NCBI GenBank assembly: GCA_030765605.1
Contig: JAVCCG010000059.1
Coordinates: forward strand, 1-64,000
Source of the DNA: Candidatus Alcyoniella australis
Lineage (GTDB): Bacteria; Lernaellota; Lernaellaia; JAVCCG01; Alcyoniellaceae
Length of the DNA stretch: 64,000 nt
Reading direction: 5' to 3'
Part shown: positions 15,085-41,567 of the stretch, piece by piece
How positions within the stretch are numbered: position 1 is the first letter of the stretch
Layout: every line of letters begins with the position of its first letter
Notes under the pieces: generated by a model
Seen by the model: only the letters and a program-made list of their open reading frames with translations
What the model was told of the DNA's origin: nothing
Database searches by the model: none
Made by a program: the position numbers and the translations under genes

Positions 15085-16929
15085 TCAACGCCCTTGGCAC
15101 GAGCCGTTACGCTCGCTTGGCTTTCCTATGCTGTGATAAATCAATTTGGGCAACGCCTGCTCGACCCACCAGGGATCGTCGTCCCACTGGAGCTGCCACA
15201 GCAGTTCGGCCGCGCCAAGCGGCTCGATGCTGAAGGTCGCCTCGAAGCCGTCGGACTCGATCCAGAGCACGCGACCGATGAACGGACCCTCGCAGAGGCC
15301 GAAGATCACGTCGCCTGGGGCCACCTCGTCCAGCCGCGGCTCGTCGCTGTAAGAATATGTAACGCTTAGGCGACTGCAATCGATCCCGACCTCGGCGTTG
15401 TCGCCCAGCTCGTGCAGGCCCTCGTGGTCCAGCCAGCACCAGGGGTCCTCGAAGTCGGTCCAACCGTTGCAGTCGTCGTCAATGCCGTTGTAGCAGTTCT
15501 CAAAGCGTCCGGGATTGACCTGCGGGTTCTCGTCGTCGCAGTCGTTCTCGCAGACCATCCAGCCGTCCTCGTCCTCGTCGAGCTCGTCGTCGGGCAGTTC
15601 TCCGTCGCAGTCGTTGTCCTCGCCATCGCAGATCTCGGGCGCACCGGGATATGTATCGGGATTGGTGTCGTCGCAGTCGTCCTCGCACAGCATGTAGTCG
15701 TCGCCGTCCTCGTCGAGCTCCCACGGAGCGACTTCGCCGTCGCAGTCGTTGTCAATGCCGTTGCAGCCCTCGGCCGCGTTGGGATGGATATCGGGGTCCG
15801 TGTCGTCGCAGTCGTCTTCGCAGGCGAGGTAACCGTCGTTGTCCTCGTCGTCCTCGTCGTAGCGCAACTCGCCGTCGCAGTCGTTGTCCTTGCCGTCGCA
15901 GACCTCGTCGGCACCCGGATGGGTGTTCGGATCGCGGTCGTCGCAATCGTCTTCGCAAACCATCCAGCCGTCGATGTCGAAGTCGGCCTCGTCGTCGCCC
16001 GGTGCGCCGTCGCAGTTGTCGTCCTTGCCGTTGCAGGTCTCGGGCGCTCCGGGATAGGCGTCGGGATCGTTGTCGTCGCAGTCGCCCTGGCAGATCATGA
16101 ACCCGTCGTCGTCAAGGTCTTTCTCGGTGGGGTCGACCGCGCCGTCGCAGTCGTTGTCGATCCCGTTGCAGCCCTCGGGCGCGTTGGGATGGACCGTGCG
16201 GTCGCCGTCGTCGCAGTCGCCGTCGCACTGTAGATAGCCGTCGCCATCCGAATCCTGCTCGTCGACCGGGATTGCGCCGTCGCAATCGTTATCCAGGCCG
16301 TCGCACAGCTCCGGAGCGCCGGGGTAAATCGCGGCGTTGTTATCGTCGCAATCGTCGCTGCAACCCAGCACGTTATCGCCGTCCGCGTCCTCCTCGCCGG
16401 CGAGCAGCGTGCCGTCGCAATCGTTGTCCAATCCGTCGCAGACCTCGGTGGCGTCGGGGTGGATCGCCGAGTCGTGGTCATCGCAGTCGCCGTCGCACTG
16501 GTACACGCCGTCGCCGTCCCAGTCCTGCTCCTCGGGATCGACCTCGCCCGAGCAGTTGTTGTCGATTCCGTCGCAGAGCTCGACCGCGCCGGGATAAACA
16601 AAGGCGTTGTCGTCGTTGCAGTCGCCCTCGCAGATCATCAGGCCGTCTTTATCGAAGTCCAGCTCATCGGGCTCAAGCTCGCCCGTGCAGTCGTTGTCCA
16701 GGCCGTCGCAGATCTCATCGGCGCCCGGATGCACCTCGGGCCGCGTGTCGTCGCAGTCGAACCCGCCGCACTCGATGTCGTAATAACCGTCCCCGTCCAG
16801 GTCGCAAGGGTCGGCGCCCCCATCGTCATCGTCGTCCCCGTCGTTGTTGCATCCGATGCAAAGCAACATCAGGCACAACAACAGCGCAATCGGAAAAACC
16901 AGCCTATGTCCGTTGCCGTTCAATTTCAT
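15085..16929 (-). CDS. MopE-like lipoprotein with ten Asp/Cys repeats
   Basis: A 614-aa predicted lipoprotein. ATG 16929 is preferred to 16935 because GGAG lies 6 nt before it but abuts the other. The lipobox ends LLCIGC, followed by a short Asp tether. Residues ~35-510 are ten tandem units of about 46 aa with the plan DxDxDGxxxCxxDCDDxxxxxxPGAxExCDGxDNDCDG, the MopE/PF11617 'putative metal-binding motif'. The spaced Asp residues look like calcium sites and the paired Cys like disulphides. The C-terminal ~100 residues (YSYSDEPRLDEVAPGDVIFG and onward) form a separate beta-rich domain. It is the first gene after a TTGACA promoter and leads the ExbB/ExbD cluster. A surface Ca-dependent structural or adhesive role is inferred. 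Confidence 0.88.
   Translation of the reverse strand: MKLNGNGHRLVFPIALLLCLMLLCIGCNNDGDDDDDGGADPCDLDGDGYYDIECGGFDCDDTRPEVHPGADEICDGLDNDCTGELEPDELDFDKDGLMICEGDCNDDNAFVYPGAVELCDGIDNNCSGEVDPEEQDWDGDGVYQCDGDCDDHDSAIHPDATEVCDGLDNDCDGTLLAGEEDADGDNVLGCSDDCDDNNAAIYPGAPELCDGLDNDCDGAIPVDEQDSDGDGYLQCDGDCDDGDRTVHPNAPEGCNGIDNDCDGAVDPTEKDLDDDGFMICQGDCDDNDPDAYPGAPETCNGKDDNCDGAPGDDEADFDIDGWMVCEDDCDDRDPNTHPGADEVCDGKDNDCDGELRYDEDDEDNDGYLACEDDCDDTDPDIHPNAAEGCNGIDNDCDGEVAPWELDEDGDDYMLCEDDCDDTNPDTYPGAPEICDGEDNDCDGELPDDELDEDEDGWMVCENDCDDENPQVNPGRFENCYNGIDDDCNGWTDFEDPWCWLDHEGLHELGDNAEVGIDCSRLSVTYSYSDEPRLDEVAPGDVIFGLCEGPFIGRVLWIESDGFEATFSIEPLGAAELLWQLQWDDDPWWVEQALPKLIYHSIGKPSERNGSCQGR
15450..16835 (-). repeat. Ten-unit coding tandem repeat (about 140 bp each)
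   Basis: The DNA for the MopE-like units repeats with a period of roughly 138-141 bp, each with a near-constant core encoding CDG-DNDCDG. Units are diverged in synonymous and linker positions, so this is an old protein repeat rather than recent amplification. Confidence 0.85.
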
Positions 16930-16995
16930 CGGCATCTCCGGTAATCAGCGATCCTGGTTTTTTGCTCAAGAAAATTGGGCTGCACCAGAATGTTG

Positions 16996-21658: not shown

Positions 21659-22079
21659 CCCTGACAGCCCCCCGCAAGTAAAGTTTTACTTTTAATATTA
21701 ACCATTTCTATCAGTATTTATTTTTAATTATCCGCCAGTTGCGCACGGAAATCAAGATCACGGCGTTTTGCCCGTTTGAAGCTTCCGGGACTGAGTGAGG
21801 TAATAAATAATGTTGGATAACATTATTTGGTAAGCTTCCGCCCGTCCACGCATAGGAGAGCGTGGCAAGGTTTCAGACTCTTGATCTTTACCTTCCCCTT
21901 CCCAATCTTCCATCGCGGAAAGCATCGTTGAACTAAGAGCATGGTACGCTCGCGTGTTTTGTGCCAGCTCCAAGCTACCGCGTGTTTTGCGCTGCAAACA
22001 CGGCTGTTGATTGACAGTTCTTCGAGCGCTATTGCACAATCAATCGGCTACATCGCAACTTTTCAGTGCAGGGGAAAAA
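21659..22079. other. Intergenic region between divergent genes
   Basis: About 420 bases, AT-rich near 21680-21735. One open frame on the minus strand (21758-22039) has no coding character and is not accepted. No tRNA or riboswitch fold was seen. It holds the candidate promoter at 22011. Confidence 0.5.
22011..22040 (+). promoter_or_regulatory. Candidate promoter of the dockerin lipoprotein gene
   Basis: TTGACA (22011-22016), an 18-nt spacer and CACAAT (22035-22040), giving a 5' leader of about 33 nt before the ATG at 22080. Motif match only. Confidence 0.5.
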
Positions 22080-24362
22080 ATGCTTGATTGGCGTAGGGCC
22101 CGGGTCTTCCTAGCGGCGATGCTCGTCGTATCGCTGCTGTTCGCCGGATGCGCGTCGGACAACGACGATGACGACGATGATCTGAACGATGACGACGACG
22201 CAGATGACGACGATCTGGACGACGACGATTCACACGACGGCCCGGCCAACGACCCGGCCTCCACGATCTTCCCCAACCCCCAGGCGCGGGCCGATGCCTT
22301 TGGGCTGTTCTACCGCGAGCGCAGCCTGCGCGCGCTGCTGGCGCTCAACCGCTTCGGCCTGTCCGGCGACGCGGTGTTCGCCGAGGCCAATGGCAAGAAC
22401 TACTACGCCAAGGACGGCGACGCGTACGAGGTCGTGCCCGGACCCAACGACAACAACCCGTTCGGCATGATCACCTACACCACCTGGGAGCTTTACCAAT
22501 CGCTAGGCGGCCGCGAGCTGGAACTGACATTGATCCGGCTATTCGAGGGGCTGCTGTTCGCCGAGCAGGTCTCGGGCCATTGGGGCCTGACCAACCGCGA
22601 GGCGCTGCCGGGCTGGACGCGGGTGATGGACGGCGTCAACGACGAGGTGCTGCGCACGCGCAACGGCGAAGATTTCGACACACCGGTCCCCTACCCGGCG
22701 GCGCTCGAGCAAGAGGTGCTCGACACGTTCTTCGAGGGCGTGCACTTCACCTATCGTGAGAATCCCGAGGAGTACTACTTCAACTTCAAGCCGATCAACG
22801 AGTTCACGTCGTTCGCCCACAAGTTCGTGTTCCACGAGCTGCCGATGTTCCTACGCGCCTCCGACTGCTGCTCATCGTTGATGAAGACCCCCGAGGGCTA
22901 TTTGTGGGAGGGGGCGTTTTGGGGCAACCACAACTCGCGCGACAACTTCACCGACTACGCCATGGGCTATCTGGCGGCGATGGAGGCGGTGAACACGCCC
23001 GGGCTGCCCGACGATCTGGCCCAGGCCGCTCAACACGCGCTGGACGCAGGCACGCGCACCTGCAATCGGATCGTCGAGGCCGGGATGGTCCAGCTCACCG
23101 TGGACGAGCACCACGACTACGACTTCCTGATCCCCGGCGGATTCAACCGTCCCGACGGCCATCGCGAGATCGAGTGGCAGGACCTGGGCTCGCTGGCCTC
23201 GTGCACGATGGTCTTCACCGCCCAGGCGATCAGCGGCAACGGCCTGAGCCACCCGGTGCCCCCGCTGCCGATGCCCGGCGACCCGGTCTCCCAGGCGCTG
23301 CAGCATCTGTTCAATCTGCTCGGTATTCCGGCCCTGGCGCCGATTCCCGAGTGCGTGACCGTGGACGACGCGTTCATCGGCTTCACCTGGAAGGGGCTGC
23401 TCGAGGCCGAGGTGCTGGGCATGCCCTGGTACGAATTCGCCGAGCTGATCTCGCTGATCAATCCCGAGCTTTTGACCGACCTGATCGGCTCCACGGCCGA
23501 CGACTTTCAGGAGCTGATGCTCGGCGCGGTCTGCCTGTGCTACTTCTCGCAGATCTCGGGCGACGAAAAGCTCTACCTGCAATCGCGCGACACCCTGGCC
23601 CACCTGGTCGAGGTGACCTACATCCTCACCGACCTGGTCTACGGCGTTAAATCCAATGCGGAGCTCGACCAGCGCGTGGTCGCTGCAATGGGTCAAAAGG
23701 CGGCGGACGAGAAATACTCGCGCGCCGAGGAGCTGTACTACCTGGCCACACTCTGGGGCCGGATGTTCAACATCGACACCGACTTTGAACACCTCGGCGG
23801 CTTTGCCATCGCCAATTCGCGCATCGCCTCGGTCGAGGCGCACCTGAGCTACGGCGACACCGCGCCCAAACCGCTGATGACCGACCAACAGATGTGGGAC
23901 ACGATGCTCGATTCCGAGACCGGCTACCTGTGGAACCGGGAGCCCTGGATACAGGAGCGCTACCTCGAGCGCTTCGGCTACACCGTGCCCGTGCGCCGCG
24001 CTGGCGAGGGCTACGAGGCGATCGGCATCGACGGCCAGTGGCAGGCCACTGAAAACGACCGTCATCGTTGGTTCGGCCCGGGCAAGCTGTGGTACGAGGC
24101 GCCGCTGTGCGCAATGGACGTCAACCACACACTGGACTGCTACTGGGCGGCCCTGGGCTGTGCACCGGCCGACCTGGACAACAGCGGAACCGCGGACGGA
24201 GACGACTTGATTCTGTTCGAGGCGGCCTGGGCCCAGTACGGCAACGGCGCGCAGTGCTCGTCATCCAACGACTGGTGCGATCACGCGGACCTCGATCAAA
24301 ACGGCGTGCTCGACGCCGACGACCAGGGCTATATCCAGGCCGCCCAGGGCTGCGTCAGGTAG
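22080..24362 (+). CDS. Asp-tethered lipoprotein with C-terminal dockerin-like repeats
   Basis: A 760-aa protein. ATG 22080 follows AGGGG by 5 nt and begins the signal MLDWRRARVFLAAML, with lipobox LLFAGC; an earlier in-frame start at 22011 overlaps the promoter. After the Cys comes a run of about 35 residues that are mostly Asp. A large helical region (about 60-690) is unrecognised; it contains WEGAFWGNHNSRDNFTDYAMGYLAAMEA-like Trp/Gly/Tyr-rich stretches split by helices, reminiscent of alpha/alpha-barrel proteins. The C-terminal ~65 residues hold two calcium-loop repeats, ADLDNSGTADGDDLILFEAA and ADLDQNGVLDADDQGYIQAA, the pattern of type I dockerins. No cohesin is encoded nearby. Its 3' end overlaps the convergent nitroreductase gene by 8 bp. 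Confidence 0.8.
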   Translation: MLDWRRARVFLAAMLVVSLLFAGCASDNDDDDDDLNDDDDADDDDLDDDDSHDGPANDPASTIFPNPQARADAFGLFYRERSLRALLALNRFGLSGDAVFAEANGKNYYAKDGDAYEVVPGPNDNNPFGMITYTTWELYQSLGGRELELTLIRLFEGLLFAEQVSGHWGLTNREALPGWTRVMDGVNDEVLRTRNGEDFDTPVPYPAALEQEVLDTFFEGVHFTYRENPEEYYFNFKPINEFTSFAHKFVFHELPMFLRASDCCSSLMKTPEGYLWEGAFWGNHNSRDNFTDYAMGYLAAMEAVNTPGLPDDLAQAAQHALDAGTRTCNRIVEAGMVQLTVDEHHDYDFLIPGGFNRPDGHREIEWQDLGSLASCTMVFTAQAISGNGLSHPVPPLPMPGDPVSQALQHLFNLLGIPALAPIPECVTVDDAFIGFTWKGLLEAEVLGMPWYEFAELISLINPELLTDLIGSTADDFQELMLGAVCLCYFSQISGDEKLYLQSRDTLAHLVEVTYILTDLVYGVKSNAELDQRVVAAMGQKAADEKYSRAEELYYLATLWGRMFNIDTDFEHLGGFAIANSRIASVEAHLSYGDTAPKPLMTDQQMWDTMLDSETGYLWNREPWIQERYLERFGYTVPVRRAGEGYEAIGIDGQWQATENDRHRWFGPGKLWYEAPLCAMDVNHTLDCYWAALGCAPADLDNSGTADGDDLILFEAAWAQYGNGAQCSSSNDWCDHADLDQNGVLDADDQGYIQAAQGCVR

Positions 24363-25371: not shown

Positions 25372-25489
25372 GCGGCTTGTCGGACATTCACGGCCCCGCT
25401 CCGATCAAGTTCCCTATGAGTCAGCTCATACCGTCGCTTGGCCGCGAAATTGATAATGGCGATCGAAAACAACCCGGCGCGAGGCGCAG

Positions 25490-26344
25490 ATGACAAAGTT
25501 AATATCGCAACACTACCTGCTGTTGACCGGCTTGGTGCTGATCGTTGCGCTTGTAGCGGCGGCCTTTGCCGGAATCGAGGATCAACGGCCGCAAGGGCTG
25601 AACCTGGAACACGAGGCAACTATGGACTCACAGGCCAATTCGCGGGGCTCGGCGGAACTTCCGCCCATCGACCAATCGCGACCGCAGAACACTCAGATCG
25701 CCACCTTCGCCCTCGGCTGATTTTGGGGACCCGACTCCCGGTTCGGGAGTGAGGCAGGCGTAATCAGCACGCGGGTGGGCTATGCCGGCGGCTCCAAGGC
25801 CGATCCGACGTATCGCAGCCTGGGCGATCATACCGAGTCGATCCAGATCGAGTTCGACCCACAGCGCATCAGCTTTGACGAGCTGTTGCAGATCTTCTGG
25901 TCGATGCACAATCCAACCAGCCGCTCGTGGTTTACTCAGTACAAGACGATTCTGTTCGTACAAAACGACGAGCAGTTCGCCGCGGCCCAACGTTCCAAGG
26001 CCGCGCTGGAGGAGGCTCTGGGCCACAAGGTACGCACCGAAATTCGCCAGCTCGATCGCTTTTATCAGGCCGAGGATTATCACCAGAAATACAAGCTGCA
26101 ACAGGACAGCGCGTTGATGGGTCAGATCAGCGACAAGTACCAGACCGTTCAGCAGTTCGTCGACTCGACCTTGGCTGCGCGACTCAACGGCTACGTGGGC
26201 GGCAACGGTTCGACCGTAACCGCGCAGCGCGAGATCGAGCTCTACGACCTATCTCCGGCAGCCCGTGCGCGGCTCGAGTCGATCTTGGGAATGCAGATCG
26301 CGCCGCAGCCCAACGTCTGTCCGGTAAGCGGCGTGGGCCACTAA
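25490..26344 (+). CDS. msrA: Methionine sulfoxide reductase A, selenocysteine-containing, membrane-anchored
   Basis: Reduces the S form of methionine sulfoxide. Read through the in-frame TGA at 25718-25720, the frame gives 284 aa. Residues 1-76 contain a membrane or signal helix (about 9-28) and end ATFALG; after the TGA the frame continues FWGPDSRFGSEAGVISTRVG then YAGG. The family motif is ATFAGGCFWGP-, so TGA sits exactly at the catalytic Cys, making Sec77. Later family motifs are intact: DPTYRSLGDHTESIQIEFDP, FWSMHNPTS and DSTLAARLNGYVGG. A Cys in NVCPVSG near the C-terminus may resolve the selenenyl intermediate. A bacterial SECIS-like hairpin follows the TGA. The ATG has GAGG 5 nt upstream. 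The N-terminal helix implies action outside the cytoplasm. A nonsense mutation is the alternative, but perfect frame conservation on both sides argues against it. Confidence 0.9.
25718..25754 (+). promoter_or_regulatory. Bacterial SECIS-like element after the Sec codon
   Basis: The UGA (25718-25720) is followed by a perfect 7-bp hairpin: ACTCCCG (25734-25740), loop GTT, CGGGAGT (25744-25750). Counting the U of UGA as 1, the apical GU is at 24-25; in E. coli fdhF it is at 23-24. The GGU apical loop and spacing match what SelB recognises in known bacterial SECIS elements. Confidence 0.8.
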
Positions 26345-39442: not shown

Positions 39443-40180
39443 TCACTCCCCTTGAAGATGCGTCAGCTCGATTTCGCCCAACGCACCGATCTTGTCGTTG
39501 ATAATCACCAGCGCACCGCGCACGCCCTCGAGCCCCACGATCTTGTGTAGCGCCGCGTCAACCTCGCCTGCGTCGCCCACCATGTTGCCCAGTGCCGTGG
39601 CGCAGGCGTCGGCCAGGGCCGCGTCGTCGGCCACTACGCAGGCCGCGTCGGTCGCTCCTTGCGACAGGCTGTGCCCCACGCTGGCCGAAGATGTGGCTAC
39701 GCCCGCGGGCAGGCGCGAGGCCTCAATCTTCAGTCCGATTTTGCCCGACAGCGTAGAGCCGCCGGCGAACACGCCGACGCTGAGTTCGCAATCGGCCGCA
39801 AGGTACAGATCGCCGCCGTTCTCCACGATCACCACAGCGCAGTCCTGCGCCAAACGCTCGCCCACGGACTGGGCGATCGACCCGGCCACTGCTGCCATCG
39901 GCCCGGTGCCGGACTGCTCCGCGGCGTGGATCATCCGACGAACCGTGGGCGGCGCAAAGGGAACCGGCGGCAACGGCGCCAGCGATTGGGCGAACTTCGA
40001 ATCGCGCTCGATGGCCGACTGCACCTCGTCACGCGCCTTGAGCAACGCCTCCAGCGCCTCGCGCTCCATGGGCCGCGAGGCGATCACCAGCAGGTCGGAC
40101 TCGCCCGCGTGCAACTCAAAGCGTTGCAGCGCACCCAGGTCGGCCTCGAGCTCGTGGCGATAGACGCGCGGCTGGTACAT
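39443..40180 (-). CDS. UPF0280 family protein (ApbE-like)
   Basis: A 245-aa protein of UPF0280/COG2122, related to the ApbE flavin-transferase fold. Motifs include ESDLLVIASRP, SGTGPMAAVAGSIAQSVGER, VIVENGGDLYLAAD and AGVATSSASVGHSLSQGATD, the conserved core of the family. It lies between DUF39 (TGATG overlap upstream) and NIL-ferredoxin, the arrangement seen in anaerobes that make homocysteine from aspartate semialdehyde and sulfide. Its exact chemical role in that step is not settled. Confidence 0.9.
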   Translation of the reverse strand: MYQPRVYRHELEADLGALQRFELHAGESDLLVIASRPMEREALEALLKARDEVQSAIERDSKFAQSLAPLPPVPFAPPTVRRMIHAAEQSGTGPMAAVAGSIAQSVGERLAQDCAVVIVENGGDLYLAADCELSVGVFAGGSTLSGKIGLKIEASRLPAGVATSSASVGHSLSQGATDAACVVADDAALADACATALGNMVGDAGEVDAALHKIVGLEGVRGALVIINDKIGALGEIELTHLQGE

Positions 40181-41340
40181 CAGCGCGGCAGAAGCTGTTG
40201 AGCCTCGCCCAGGGTGAAGTTACCCGTGGCGATCCAGTCCTTGAGCAGCGCCGCGATCTCGCGCGCCTTGGGACGCGAGGACATGCTTGCCGTGGGGACC
40301 GTCTTTTCGCGGAACTCGACCTGGCCCGAGTACAGCTCGGCGTAGCTGACCTCGGCCAGGTCTTTGGCCTGACCGTTGGGATAGTCCTCGGAGTAGTCGA
40401 CGATCTGCGTCAGCAGCTCGCTGTCCGTGGCCGCAGCCTGGCCGCAGATCGCCTGGTCGATGATCGGGATCGGAATTCCCACGCCCATGGTCATCGACAC
40501 GCCGTAGCCCAACAGGCTGGTCGGCCGCAGCCAATCGGCGCTCATCCCCTTGAGGTCGCCTTGCAGCGCCAATGTTCCGGCGCCGTTCTTGGGCGCCCCT
40601 CCGGCCGTGCGCTCGACCTGCGGGTTGTGCTGGGTGCCGTGGCCCACGACCCAGCCCACGCCGCCGCCGAGGAAGATCTTGGTTCCCAGGCCGATGGTGC
40701 GGTATTCCGGATCCTTGAGCATCGGGCTCAGTGCTCCGGCGCTGGAGAAGTTGATATTGCCCGCGTCGGGCTTGAGGATCCCCATGTAGGTGTAGATCGT
40801 TTTGGCGCTGAGGTTCACTGCCGCCGGGTAGTTCTGGTAGCAGTTGCGCGGGTTGTACAGCCAGGCGTTGGGCAGCTGATCGAGGGTCAACTCCTTGATC
40901 AGGCTGCGGCCGGGGTAGCAATCGGTGCCGTACGATACGGCCCGCAACGTGACCTTTTTGCCGGTTAGCAGGTCGTGGATCACGTGGGCGCCGCCGTACT
41001 CGAAACGTCCGGGGAAGACCTTGTTGGTCGGGTCGTCCTCGGCCAGCTCGGTGGCGCCGATGAATACGTCGACCGCAGCGATTCCGGCGTAGGCCGGCAC
41101 GTCGTTGAGCCAGGCCTTGGAGGCGCGCAGCCGCGGAGTGGCGTGGCCGAAGTTGATGAACGCGCCGCTGGAACACATCGGTCCGAAGGTGCCGGTGGTC
41201 ACTACGTCCACCCGGCGCGCGGTCTTCTCCAGCCCGTCCTCTTCGACTGCCGCGGCCAGCTCCTCGGCTGTGAGCACCACCACGTCGCCCGTTGCGATGC
41301 GCTCGTTGATCTGCTTGATCGTTCGCAGTTGTTCGCTCAT
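40180..41340 (-). CDS. DUF39 homocysteine-biosynthesis protein
   Basis: A 386-aa member of COG1900/DUF39 (HcyBio). Typical segments are TGTFGPMCSSGAFINFGH with Cys56, GGAHVIHDLLTGKKVTL, SYGTDCYPGR, INFSSAGALSPMLKDPEYRT and IFLGGGVGWVVGHGTQHNP. The family takes part in direct sulfur insertion into aspartate semialdehyde to form homocysteine, bypassing O-acylhomoserine; conserved Cys residues are thought to carry sulfur. The usual C-terminal CBS pair of archaeal versions is absent; the chain stops after the core. Controlled by the SAM-I riboswitch upstream, which fits a methionine-supply role. First gene of the three-gene operon. Confidence 0.92.
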   Translation of the reverse strand: MSEQLRTIKQINERIATGDVVVLTAEELAAAVEEDGLEKTARRVDVVTTGTFGPMCSSGAFINFGHATPRLRASKAWLNDVPAYAGIAAVDVFIGATELAEDDPTNKVFPGRFEYGGAHVIHDLLTGKKVTLRAVSYGTDCYPGRSLIKELTLDQLPNAWLYNPRNCYQNYPAAVNLSAKTIYTYMGILKPDAGNINFSSAGALSPMLKDPEYRTIGLGTKIFLGGGVGWVVGHGTQHNPQVERTAGGAPKNGAGTLALQGDLKGMSADWLRPTSLLGYGVSMTMGVGIPIPIIDQAICGQAAATDSELLTQIVDYSEDYPNGQAKDLAEVSYAELYSGQVEFREKTVPTASMSSRPKAREIAALLKDWIATGNFTLGEAQQLLPR

Positions 41341-41420: not shown

Positions 41421-41444
41421 ACGCGTCTGATCGCTTGCCCCAAC

Positions 41445-41552
41445 CTTATCTCCCGGGATAAACCCCGTTGGAATTAGCACCAGCGCGGAACGCGGTCGCC
41501 CCGCCGGTTGCTGCGGCTTCGAAGGGCCAATCCCTCCACCGCTCTTGATAAG
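41445..41552 (-). promoter_or_regulatory. SAM-I (S-box) riboswitch
   Basis: A 108-nt aptamer. P1 is CTTATC (41552-41547) with GATAAG (41450-41445). S-box core elements follow in order on the minus strand: AGAGCGGTGGAGGGA, TTGGCCC, CGAAGCC, GCAACC, and GGTGCTAATTCC for the P3/P4 region. These agree with the SAM-I consensus almost base for base. Binding of S-adenosylmethionine should allow the downstream terminator to form and shut off the homocysteine operon. Confidence 0.96.
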
Positions 41553-41567
41553 ACCAGATACCGGCAC

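What the first reader, a model, noticed from the sequence alone, without database searches (positions are those of the whole stretch)
25490..26344. Selenocysteine-containing, membrane-anchored MsrA that standard gene calling would split
The frame upstream of TGA 25718-25720 ends ATFALG and the frame after it begins FWGPDSRF...VGYAGG, with no shift. The MsrA active site is G-G-C-F-W-G, so TGA replaces exactly the catalytic Cys codon. All other MsrA motifs persist. Sec-MsrA is known in a few bacteria and algae, but this one has an N-terminal membrane helix, implying methionine repair outside the cytoplasm.
Basis: partly seen in the sequence, partly recalled or inferred. Interest (0 to 1): 0.92.

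Follow-up and report, generated by a model that had tools for sequence, protein, structure and literature searches.

The report
Exported selenocysteine methionine-sulfoxide repair enzyme
This gene encodes a protein-repair enzyme (MsrA) that carries selenocysteine, read from an internal TGA, in place of its catalytic cysteine; it belongs to a known selenoprotein subfamily, but it and many relatives in other phyla carry an export signal, so selenium-based methionine repair probably also works outside the cytoplasm.

Summary
The in-frame TGA at 25718-25720 sits exactly at the catalytic position of a full-length MsrA (ORF 25490-26344). It encodes selenocysteine rather than a stop. The genome has tRNA-Sec, SelA, SelB and SelD (SelD itself has an in-frame TGA at its Sec site). 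Seventeen related genes have TGA at the same codon. A 7-bp hairpin with a GUU loop 21 nt past the TGA is conserved in the TGA genes, with compensatory changes, and is absent from Cys homologues. The closest known protein is Clostridium oremlandii Sec-MsrA, whose fold and extra C-terminal helical domain it shares. So Sec-MsrA itself is known. What I did not find described is the exported form. The window protein has an N-terminal signal segment, as do 14 other Sec homologues spread over at least four phyla; a few are cytosolic, and one genome has both kinds. Whether the segment stays as an anchor or is cleaved (AFA|G) is open. Twelve of the 15 exported Sec forms have an extra Cys outside the transmembrane segment; C. 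oremlandii MsrA has none. I propose recycling through that Cys by a CcdA/thioredoxin-type relay, which the genome encodes. That step is inference.

The parts
25490..26344 (+). msrA selenoprotein gene, 284 aa with Sec at residue 77 (TGA read as Sec)
25481..25484 (+). GAGG ribosome-binding site, 5 nt before ATG 25490
   Evidence: sequence
25490..25570 (+). N-terminal export signal or membrane anchor, residues 1-27 (MTKLISQHYLLLTGLVLIVALVAAAFA|G)
   Evidence: hydrophobicity and null; AlphaFold helix 2-27; similar segments in relatives
25571..25699 (+). flexible linker, residues 28-70, low confidence in the model over 32-48, containing the conserved PPID stretch
25718..25720 (+). TGA codon for selenocysteine 77, the catalytic residue of GUFWG
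25734..25750 (+). bacterial SECIS-type hairpin ACUCCCG-GUU-CGGGAGU; loop at 25741-25743
25700..26107 (+). MsrA catalytic domain (PF01625), residues 71-206
26108..26284 (+). C-terminal helical domain characteristic of C. oremlandii-type Sec-MsrA (helices within 207-265; PF20939 matches 226-250, just below its cut-off)
26318..26320 (+). Cys277 in a flexible C-terminal tail (NVCPVSGVGH), proposed resolving residue
   Evidence: sequence; low pLDDT 271-282
25622..25624 (+). internal ATG (Met45) with GAGG 5 nt upstream: possible second start for a cytosolic form, not supported statistically

Best explanation
This is a C. oremlandii-type selenocysteine MsrA that is exported. SelB and tRNA-Sec decode TGA 25718-25720 as Sec with the help of the hairpin just downstream. 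The N-terminal signal carries the protein across the inner membrane, either as a tethered or as a processed soluble enzyme, where Sec77 reduces methionine-S-sulfoxide in envelope proteins. The resulting selenenic acid is most likely resolved by Cys277 on the flexible tail, and the bond re-reduced by an extracytoplasmic thioredoxin-type protein fed by CcdA. Shown: reading frame, Sec machinery, hairpin conservation, predicted fold, signal segment, presence of CcdA genes. Inferred: actual Sec incorporation in this organism, side of the membrane, role of Cys277, electron donor. The confidence given is for an exported Sec-MsrA; for the Cys277/CcdA recycling step alone I would put about 0.4.
For: Machinery: tRNA-Sec 76.1 bits, confirmed by ARAGORN with anticodon TCA; SelA 580 bits; full-length SelB 356 bits; SelD 386 bits with its own in-frame TGA in HGAGUACK. 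TGA at the same codon in 17 other genes of this subtype read in full. Hairpin: columns 18/32, 20/30, 21/29 and 22/28 are paired in 17-18 of 18 TGA genes; in 18 Cys genes columns 18/32 pair in 0, 19/31 in 1, 20/30 in 3, 23/27 in 3. The glycine codon in the 3' stem is GGG in 18/18 TGA genes and 3/18 Cys genes. Five compensatory cells in three pairs, a number none of 500 shuffles reach. Loop begins 21 nt after the TGA with G first, within the 16-37 nt model. Fold: best PDB hits by sequence and structure are C. oremlandii MsrA (5.9e-55; TM-score 0.90 on the target). Export: hydrophobic N-terminus in the window, L029, L049, L077, L078, L080-L084 and L089-L093, and in Cys homologue L048 of the same class. 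Genome G063 holds one exported and one apparently cytosolic copy (L080, L079). CcdA-thioredoxin-like fusion L088 and CcdA L087 in the own genome; no clear stand-alone glutaredoxin, only one 25.8-bit match inside a 406-aa frame.
Against: The hairpin region alone does not fold better than shuffles (z -0.15), so the RNA evidence rests on comparison. The outermost hairpin pair is not conserved and some sequences (L082, L083, L093) keep only part of the stem. Cys277 lies in a low-confidence tail and extra cysteines are in different places in different homologues; L082, L083 and L093 have none outside the hydrophobic segment. No thioredoxin or CcdA gene is adjacent. No dedicated signal-peptide predictor was available. 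Draft assembly (157 contigs); no reads examined.
Confidence: 0.86

Rival explanations
1. The TGA is a genuine stop or a disabling mutation (or sequencing error) in a Cys-type msrA, so the locus is a pseudogene.
For: The nearest homologue in the same class (L048) uses Cys; the assembly is fragmented.
Against: Full Sec machinery; TGA at the identical codon in 17 other genes from many genomes, with a hairpin conserved only in the TGA genes; no other MsrA in the genome; intact frame on both sides of the TGA.
Confidence: 0.03
2. The true start is the internal Met45, so the enzyme is an ordinary cytosolic Sec-MsrA and the hydrophobic stretch is untranslated.
For: Met45 has a GAGG 5 nt upstream and lies where cytosolic homologues start, 25-32 codons before Sec.
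Against: ATG 25490 has an equally good GAGG and spacing; the hydrophobicity is reached by 0.5% of open segments and by none of 7,963 open shuffles; similar N-terminal segments in 14 other Sec homologues and in L048, several with strong ribosome-binding sites and no internal ATG preceded by one (L089-L091).
Confidence: 0.08
3. Dual targeting: both starts are used, giving an exported and a cytosolic Sec-MsrA from the only msrA gene.
For: Only one MsrA in the genome; internal ATG with Shine-Dalgarno in the window, L081, L082, L084 and L093.
Against: 5 of 16 exported genes against 3.4 expected from synonymous-codon shuffling, P = 0.18.
Confidence: 0.15
4. Exported Sec-MsrA as in the best explanation, but recycled as a 1-Sec enzyme by glutaredoxin or another monothiol route as in C. 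oremlandii, Cys277 being incidental.
For: C. oremlandii MsrA has no Cys and is reduced by glutaredoxin (PMC4333827); exported L082, L083 and L093 have no extra Cys outside the hydrophobic segment.
Against: Twelve of 15 exported Sec homologues have an extra Cys outside the transmembrane segment, often in a short C-[AP]-x-[PS] context in a flexible end or linker; no clear glutaredoxin in the genome.
Confidence: 0.3

Closest known systems
Clostridium (Alkaliphilus) oremlandii selenoprotein MsrA, CoMsrA (PDB 4lwj, 4lwk, 4lwl, 4lwm, 4u66; PMC4333827, PMC4479559)
   Same: Sec at the catalytic position of GUFWG, shared catalytic fold and extra C-terminal helical domain, 46% identity in the structural alignment
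   Different: CoMsrA is 209 aa, its catalytic domain starts at residue 1 (no room for an export signal), and it has no Cys at all; the window protein has a 27-residue export segment, a linker and Cys277
Exported Cys-type MsrA/MsrAB with CcdA and extracellular thioredoxins (Streptococcus pneumoniae SpMsrAB2/Etrx, PMC3914529; Haemophilus influenzae periplasmic MsrAB, PMC9404787)
   Same: Methionine sulfoxide repair outside the cytoplasm, with electrons from CcdA-type proteins (proposed here)
   Different: Those use Cys and are MsrA-MsrB fusions, without the helical domain (last two points from general knowledge of the family)
MsrPQ of Gram-negative envelopes
   Same: Envelope methionine sulfoxide repair (PMC6316033)
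   Different: Unrelated enzyme fed by the respiratory chain; a molybdenum enzyme, from general knowledge
Sec-MsrA listed in genome and metagenome surveys (e.g. Syntrophobacter fumaroxidans, PMC1794560; marine GOS set, PMC2398784)
   Same: MsrA with Sec at the catalytic position
   Different: I found no statement on a signal peptide for MsrA in those papers

Membership tests
Bacterial selenoprotein MsrA | MsrA catalytic domain | tested here: met
   PF01625 3.8e-41, TIGR00401 above cut-off
Bacterial selenoprotein MsrA | in-frame TGA at the catalytic residue of GxFWG | tested here: met
   U77; TGA in 18 aligned genes of this subtype including the window
Bacterial selenoprotein MsrA | Sec decoding genes in the same genome (selA, selB, selC, selD) | tested here: met
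Bacterial selenoprotein MsrA | SECIS-type hairpin with G in the first two loop positions, 16-37 nt from the TGA | tested here: met
   loop GUU starting 21 nt after the TGA; comparative support; single-sequence energy not significant
Bacterial selenoprotein MsrA | Sec physically present in the protein | not testable with these tools
   needs labelling or mass spectrometry
CoMsrA-type MsrA with helical domain | C-terminal helical domain (PF20939) | tested here: met
   Pfam 22.9 bits, just under the 23.7 cut-off, but the AlphaFold model aligns over 202 columns to full-length CoMsrA, TM 0.90 on the target
1-Cys (1-Sec) type MsrA as CoMsrA | no further Cys; recycled by glutaredoxin | tested here: not met
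   Cys277 present; no clear glutaredoxin in the genome. So it belongs to the structural subfamily but is not filed as 1-Sec type; recycling itself was not testable
Exported protein | N-terminal signal: basic start, hydrophobic core, AxA | tested here: met
   MTKLISQHY-LLLTGLVLIVALVAAAFA|G. No signal-peptide predictor was available
Membrane-anchored protein | signal segment retained, not cleaved | not testable with these tools
   AFA|G would allow cleavage; needs a fusion or N-terminal sequencing

The most novel reading that the evidence does not exclude
An envelope branch of selenocysteine MsrA exists across several little-studied phyla. In it the 1-Sec enzyme is replaced by an exported Sec/Cys enzyme with an export signal and a short, movable Cys-bearing peptide (C-terminal tail in the window, L049, L077, L078 and L084; N-terminal linker in L081 and L089-L092; loop near the active site in L029 and L080) recycled by CcdA-type relays.
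Probability: 0.4. Interest if true: 0.6.

Novelty: new variant of a known kind. Interest (0 to 1): 0.45.

Why it matters
Standard gene callers would cut this gene at the TGA, so exported selenoenzymes for protein repair are easily missed. If envelope Sec-MsrA is confirmed, these bacteria spend selenium on repairing proteins outside the cytoplasm. It would also give a natural series (1-Sec cytosolic, Sec/Cys exported, Cys exported) for testing how a selenoenzyme changes its electron donor when it changes compartment.

Tried and rejected
Single-sequence RNA folding of the SECIS region: z -0.15, no support by itself; comparative evidence used instead. Rfam scan of the window: only a SAM riboswitch, no SECIS hit. 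Dual-start hypothesis: P = 0.18 against synonymous-codon shuffles, left as a minor rival. Extra Cys in exported versus cytosolic Sec forms: 12/15 against 1/4 (L022, L023 and CoMsrA without, L079 with), about P = 0.07 worked out by hand, and the genes are related, so treated as a pattern only. Tree: exported and cytosolic labels intermingle (6 changes by parsimony, 2 forced by well-supported branches), so direction and number of gains or losses cannot be told. The original CoMsrA selenoproteome papers are not in the library.

Full report
Observation. With TGA read as selenocysteine, the frame 25490-26344 gives one 284-residue protein with U77 in ATFALG-U-FWGPDSRFG. Pfam PMSR (3.8e-41) and TIGR00401 (above its cut-off) cover the region across the TGA. 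A weaker match to PF20939, 'selenoprotein MsrA, helical domain', lies at residues 226-250 (22.9 bits against a cut-off of 23.7). It is the only MsrA-family gene found in the own genome, 98% complete.

Is the TGA selenocysteine? The genome holds a canonical tRNA-Sec (76.1 bits; ARAGORN, anticodon TCA), SelA, full-length SelB and SelD, whose own frame has TGA in HGAGUACK. Other places match the tRNA-Sec model below its cut-off, as happens in control genomes too, and are not taken as tRNA-Sec. Searches with the protein brought in 17 further genes of the same subtype with TGA at exactly this codon (read), plus L046, which has TGA there but a broken frame. They also brought in Cys homologues in Halorubrum/Haloplanus, a Thermoplasmata MAG (L024), G273 (L085) and G002, which is of the same class (L048).

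The hairpin. Fourteen bases after the TGA the RNA can form ACUCCCG-GUU-CGGGAGU (25734-25750), the loop starting 21 nt after the TGA with G first. This fits the published bacterial SECIS model (G in the first two loop positions, 16-37 nt; PMC13188914). Among 18 TGA genes the pairs at columns 18/32, 20/30, 21/29 and 22/28 form in 17, 18, 18 and 18. In 18 Cys genes the corresponding counts are 0, 3, 13 and 16, and pairs 19/31 and 23/27 form in 1 and 3. The glycine codon in the 3' arm is GGG in 18/18 TGA genes and 3/18 Cys genes, although GGT, GGC and GGA code the same residue. L079 and L080 have C-G turned into G-C, and L080 also U-A into A-U. Over the 17 distinct rows, 5 cells in 3 pairs are compensatory, a number none of 500 shuffles reached, and sliding the partner by one to three columns lowers pairing from 87% to at most 58%. 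The sequence alone does not fold better than shuffled versions, so the case is comparative. The Cys set is dominated by halophilic archaea, so its members are not independent controls.

Fold and family. By sequence the best PDB hits are C. oremlandii MsrA (5.9e-55). An AlphaFold model built on 21 relatives (mean pLDDT 87.8) matches the same entries over about 202 columns, TM-score 0.90 normalised by the target, helical domain included. C. oremlandii MsrA is a 209-residue 1-Sec enzyme without Cys, reduced by glutaredoxin, and its helical domain is needed for activity (PMC4333827). The general 'Sec-MsrA' part of the finding is therefore known, and it is listed in surveys (PMC1794560, PMC2398784, PMC13188914).

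Export. Residues 1-27 form a strongly hydrophobic segment with a basic start and an AFA|G site. Only 0.5% of open 44-codon stretches in the window come close to it (mean of at least 2.57), and none of 7,963 open shuffles do. Its ATG has GAGG 5 nt upstream. Similar segments precede the linker in L049, L077, L078 and L080 (phylum of G022), L081 and L089-L092 (phylum of G257), L083 and L093 (phylum of G249), L082, L084, L029 (lipoprotein-like FVGC), and in the Cys homologue L048 of the same class. The searches place own, G022, G257 and G249 in four different phyla. L022 and L023 (Desulfobacterales/Desulfobulbaceae) have no such segment, L079 apparently none; G063 has both an exported (L080) and an apparently cytosolic (L079) copy. 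L049 lacks an ATG before its segment; a GTG start at locus position 1369 was assumed. Many segments end in AxA, so cleavage is as likely as anchoring.

How it works. Chemistry at Sec77 follows from the family: attack on methionine-S-sulfoxide, selenenic acid, reduction. The additional Cys277 sits in a flexible tail (NVCPVSGVGH). L077, L078, L049 and L084 also have a Cys near the C-terminus, L081 and L089-L092 a Cys in the linker (VACALP, SCPVP and similar), L029 and L080 a Cys in the HN/RN-x-C loop; L082, L083 and L093 have none outside the hydrophobic segment. I infer that Cys277 resolves the selenenic acid. The genome encodes a CcdA-type membrane domain fused to a thioredoxin-like (AhpC/TSA, Redoxin) domain (L088) and a second CcdA (L087) next to a small protein with a signal-like N-terminus. 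It has no clear stand-alone glutaredoxin. A CcdA/thioredoxin relay as for exported Cys-type MsrAB (PMC3914529) is the most likely electron source, but nothing adjacent to the gene supports it: the neighbours are a nitroreductase and an M28 peptidase on the other strand.

Novelty. Sec-MsrA is known; exported MsrA is known. In the papers and searches I could use I found no description of exported Sec-MsrA. The library is open-access only, so this is not proof of absence. I rate it a new variant of a known kind.

Noticed in passing
window 41443-41554 (-): SAM riboswitch (86.3 bits) in front of a 386-aa gene on the same strand (40180-41340), which I take from memory to resemble the homocysteine-biosynthesis HcyBio family.
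   Followed up: partly
L018 (own genome C133): SelD is itself a selenoprotein with in-frame TGA (HGAGUACK).
   Followed up: partly
L046: Second msrA copy of the same subtype in Desulfobacterales LH_M18 with TGA but an apparent frameshift in the catalytic domain: decaying gene or assembly error.
   Followed up: no
L025-L042 except L029 (Halorubrum, Haloplanus): Haloarchaea carry Cys versions of this MsrA subtype, some with two copies per genome, suggesting transfer between bacteria and archaea.
   Followed up: no
L048: Exported homologue in the same class has GCFWC, a second Cys three residues after the catalytic Cys.
   Followed up: partly
window 15085-16935 (-) and 22011-24362 (+): Large predicted lipoproteins with Asp-rich runs after the lipobox Cys; a gene of the same kind lies beside L048.
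   Followed up: no
L088 1453-2559: CcdA membrane domain fused to a thioredoxin-like (AhpC/TSA, Redoxin) domain.
   Followed up: partly
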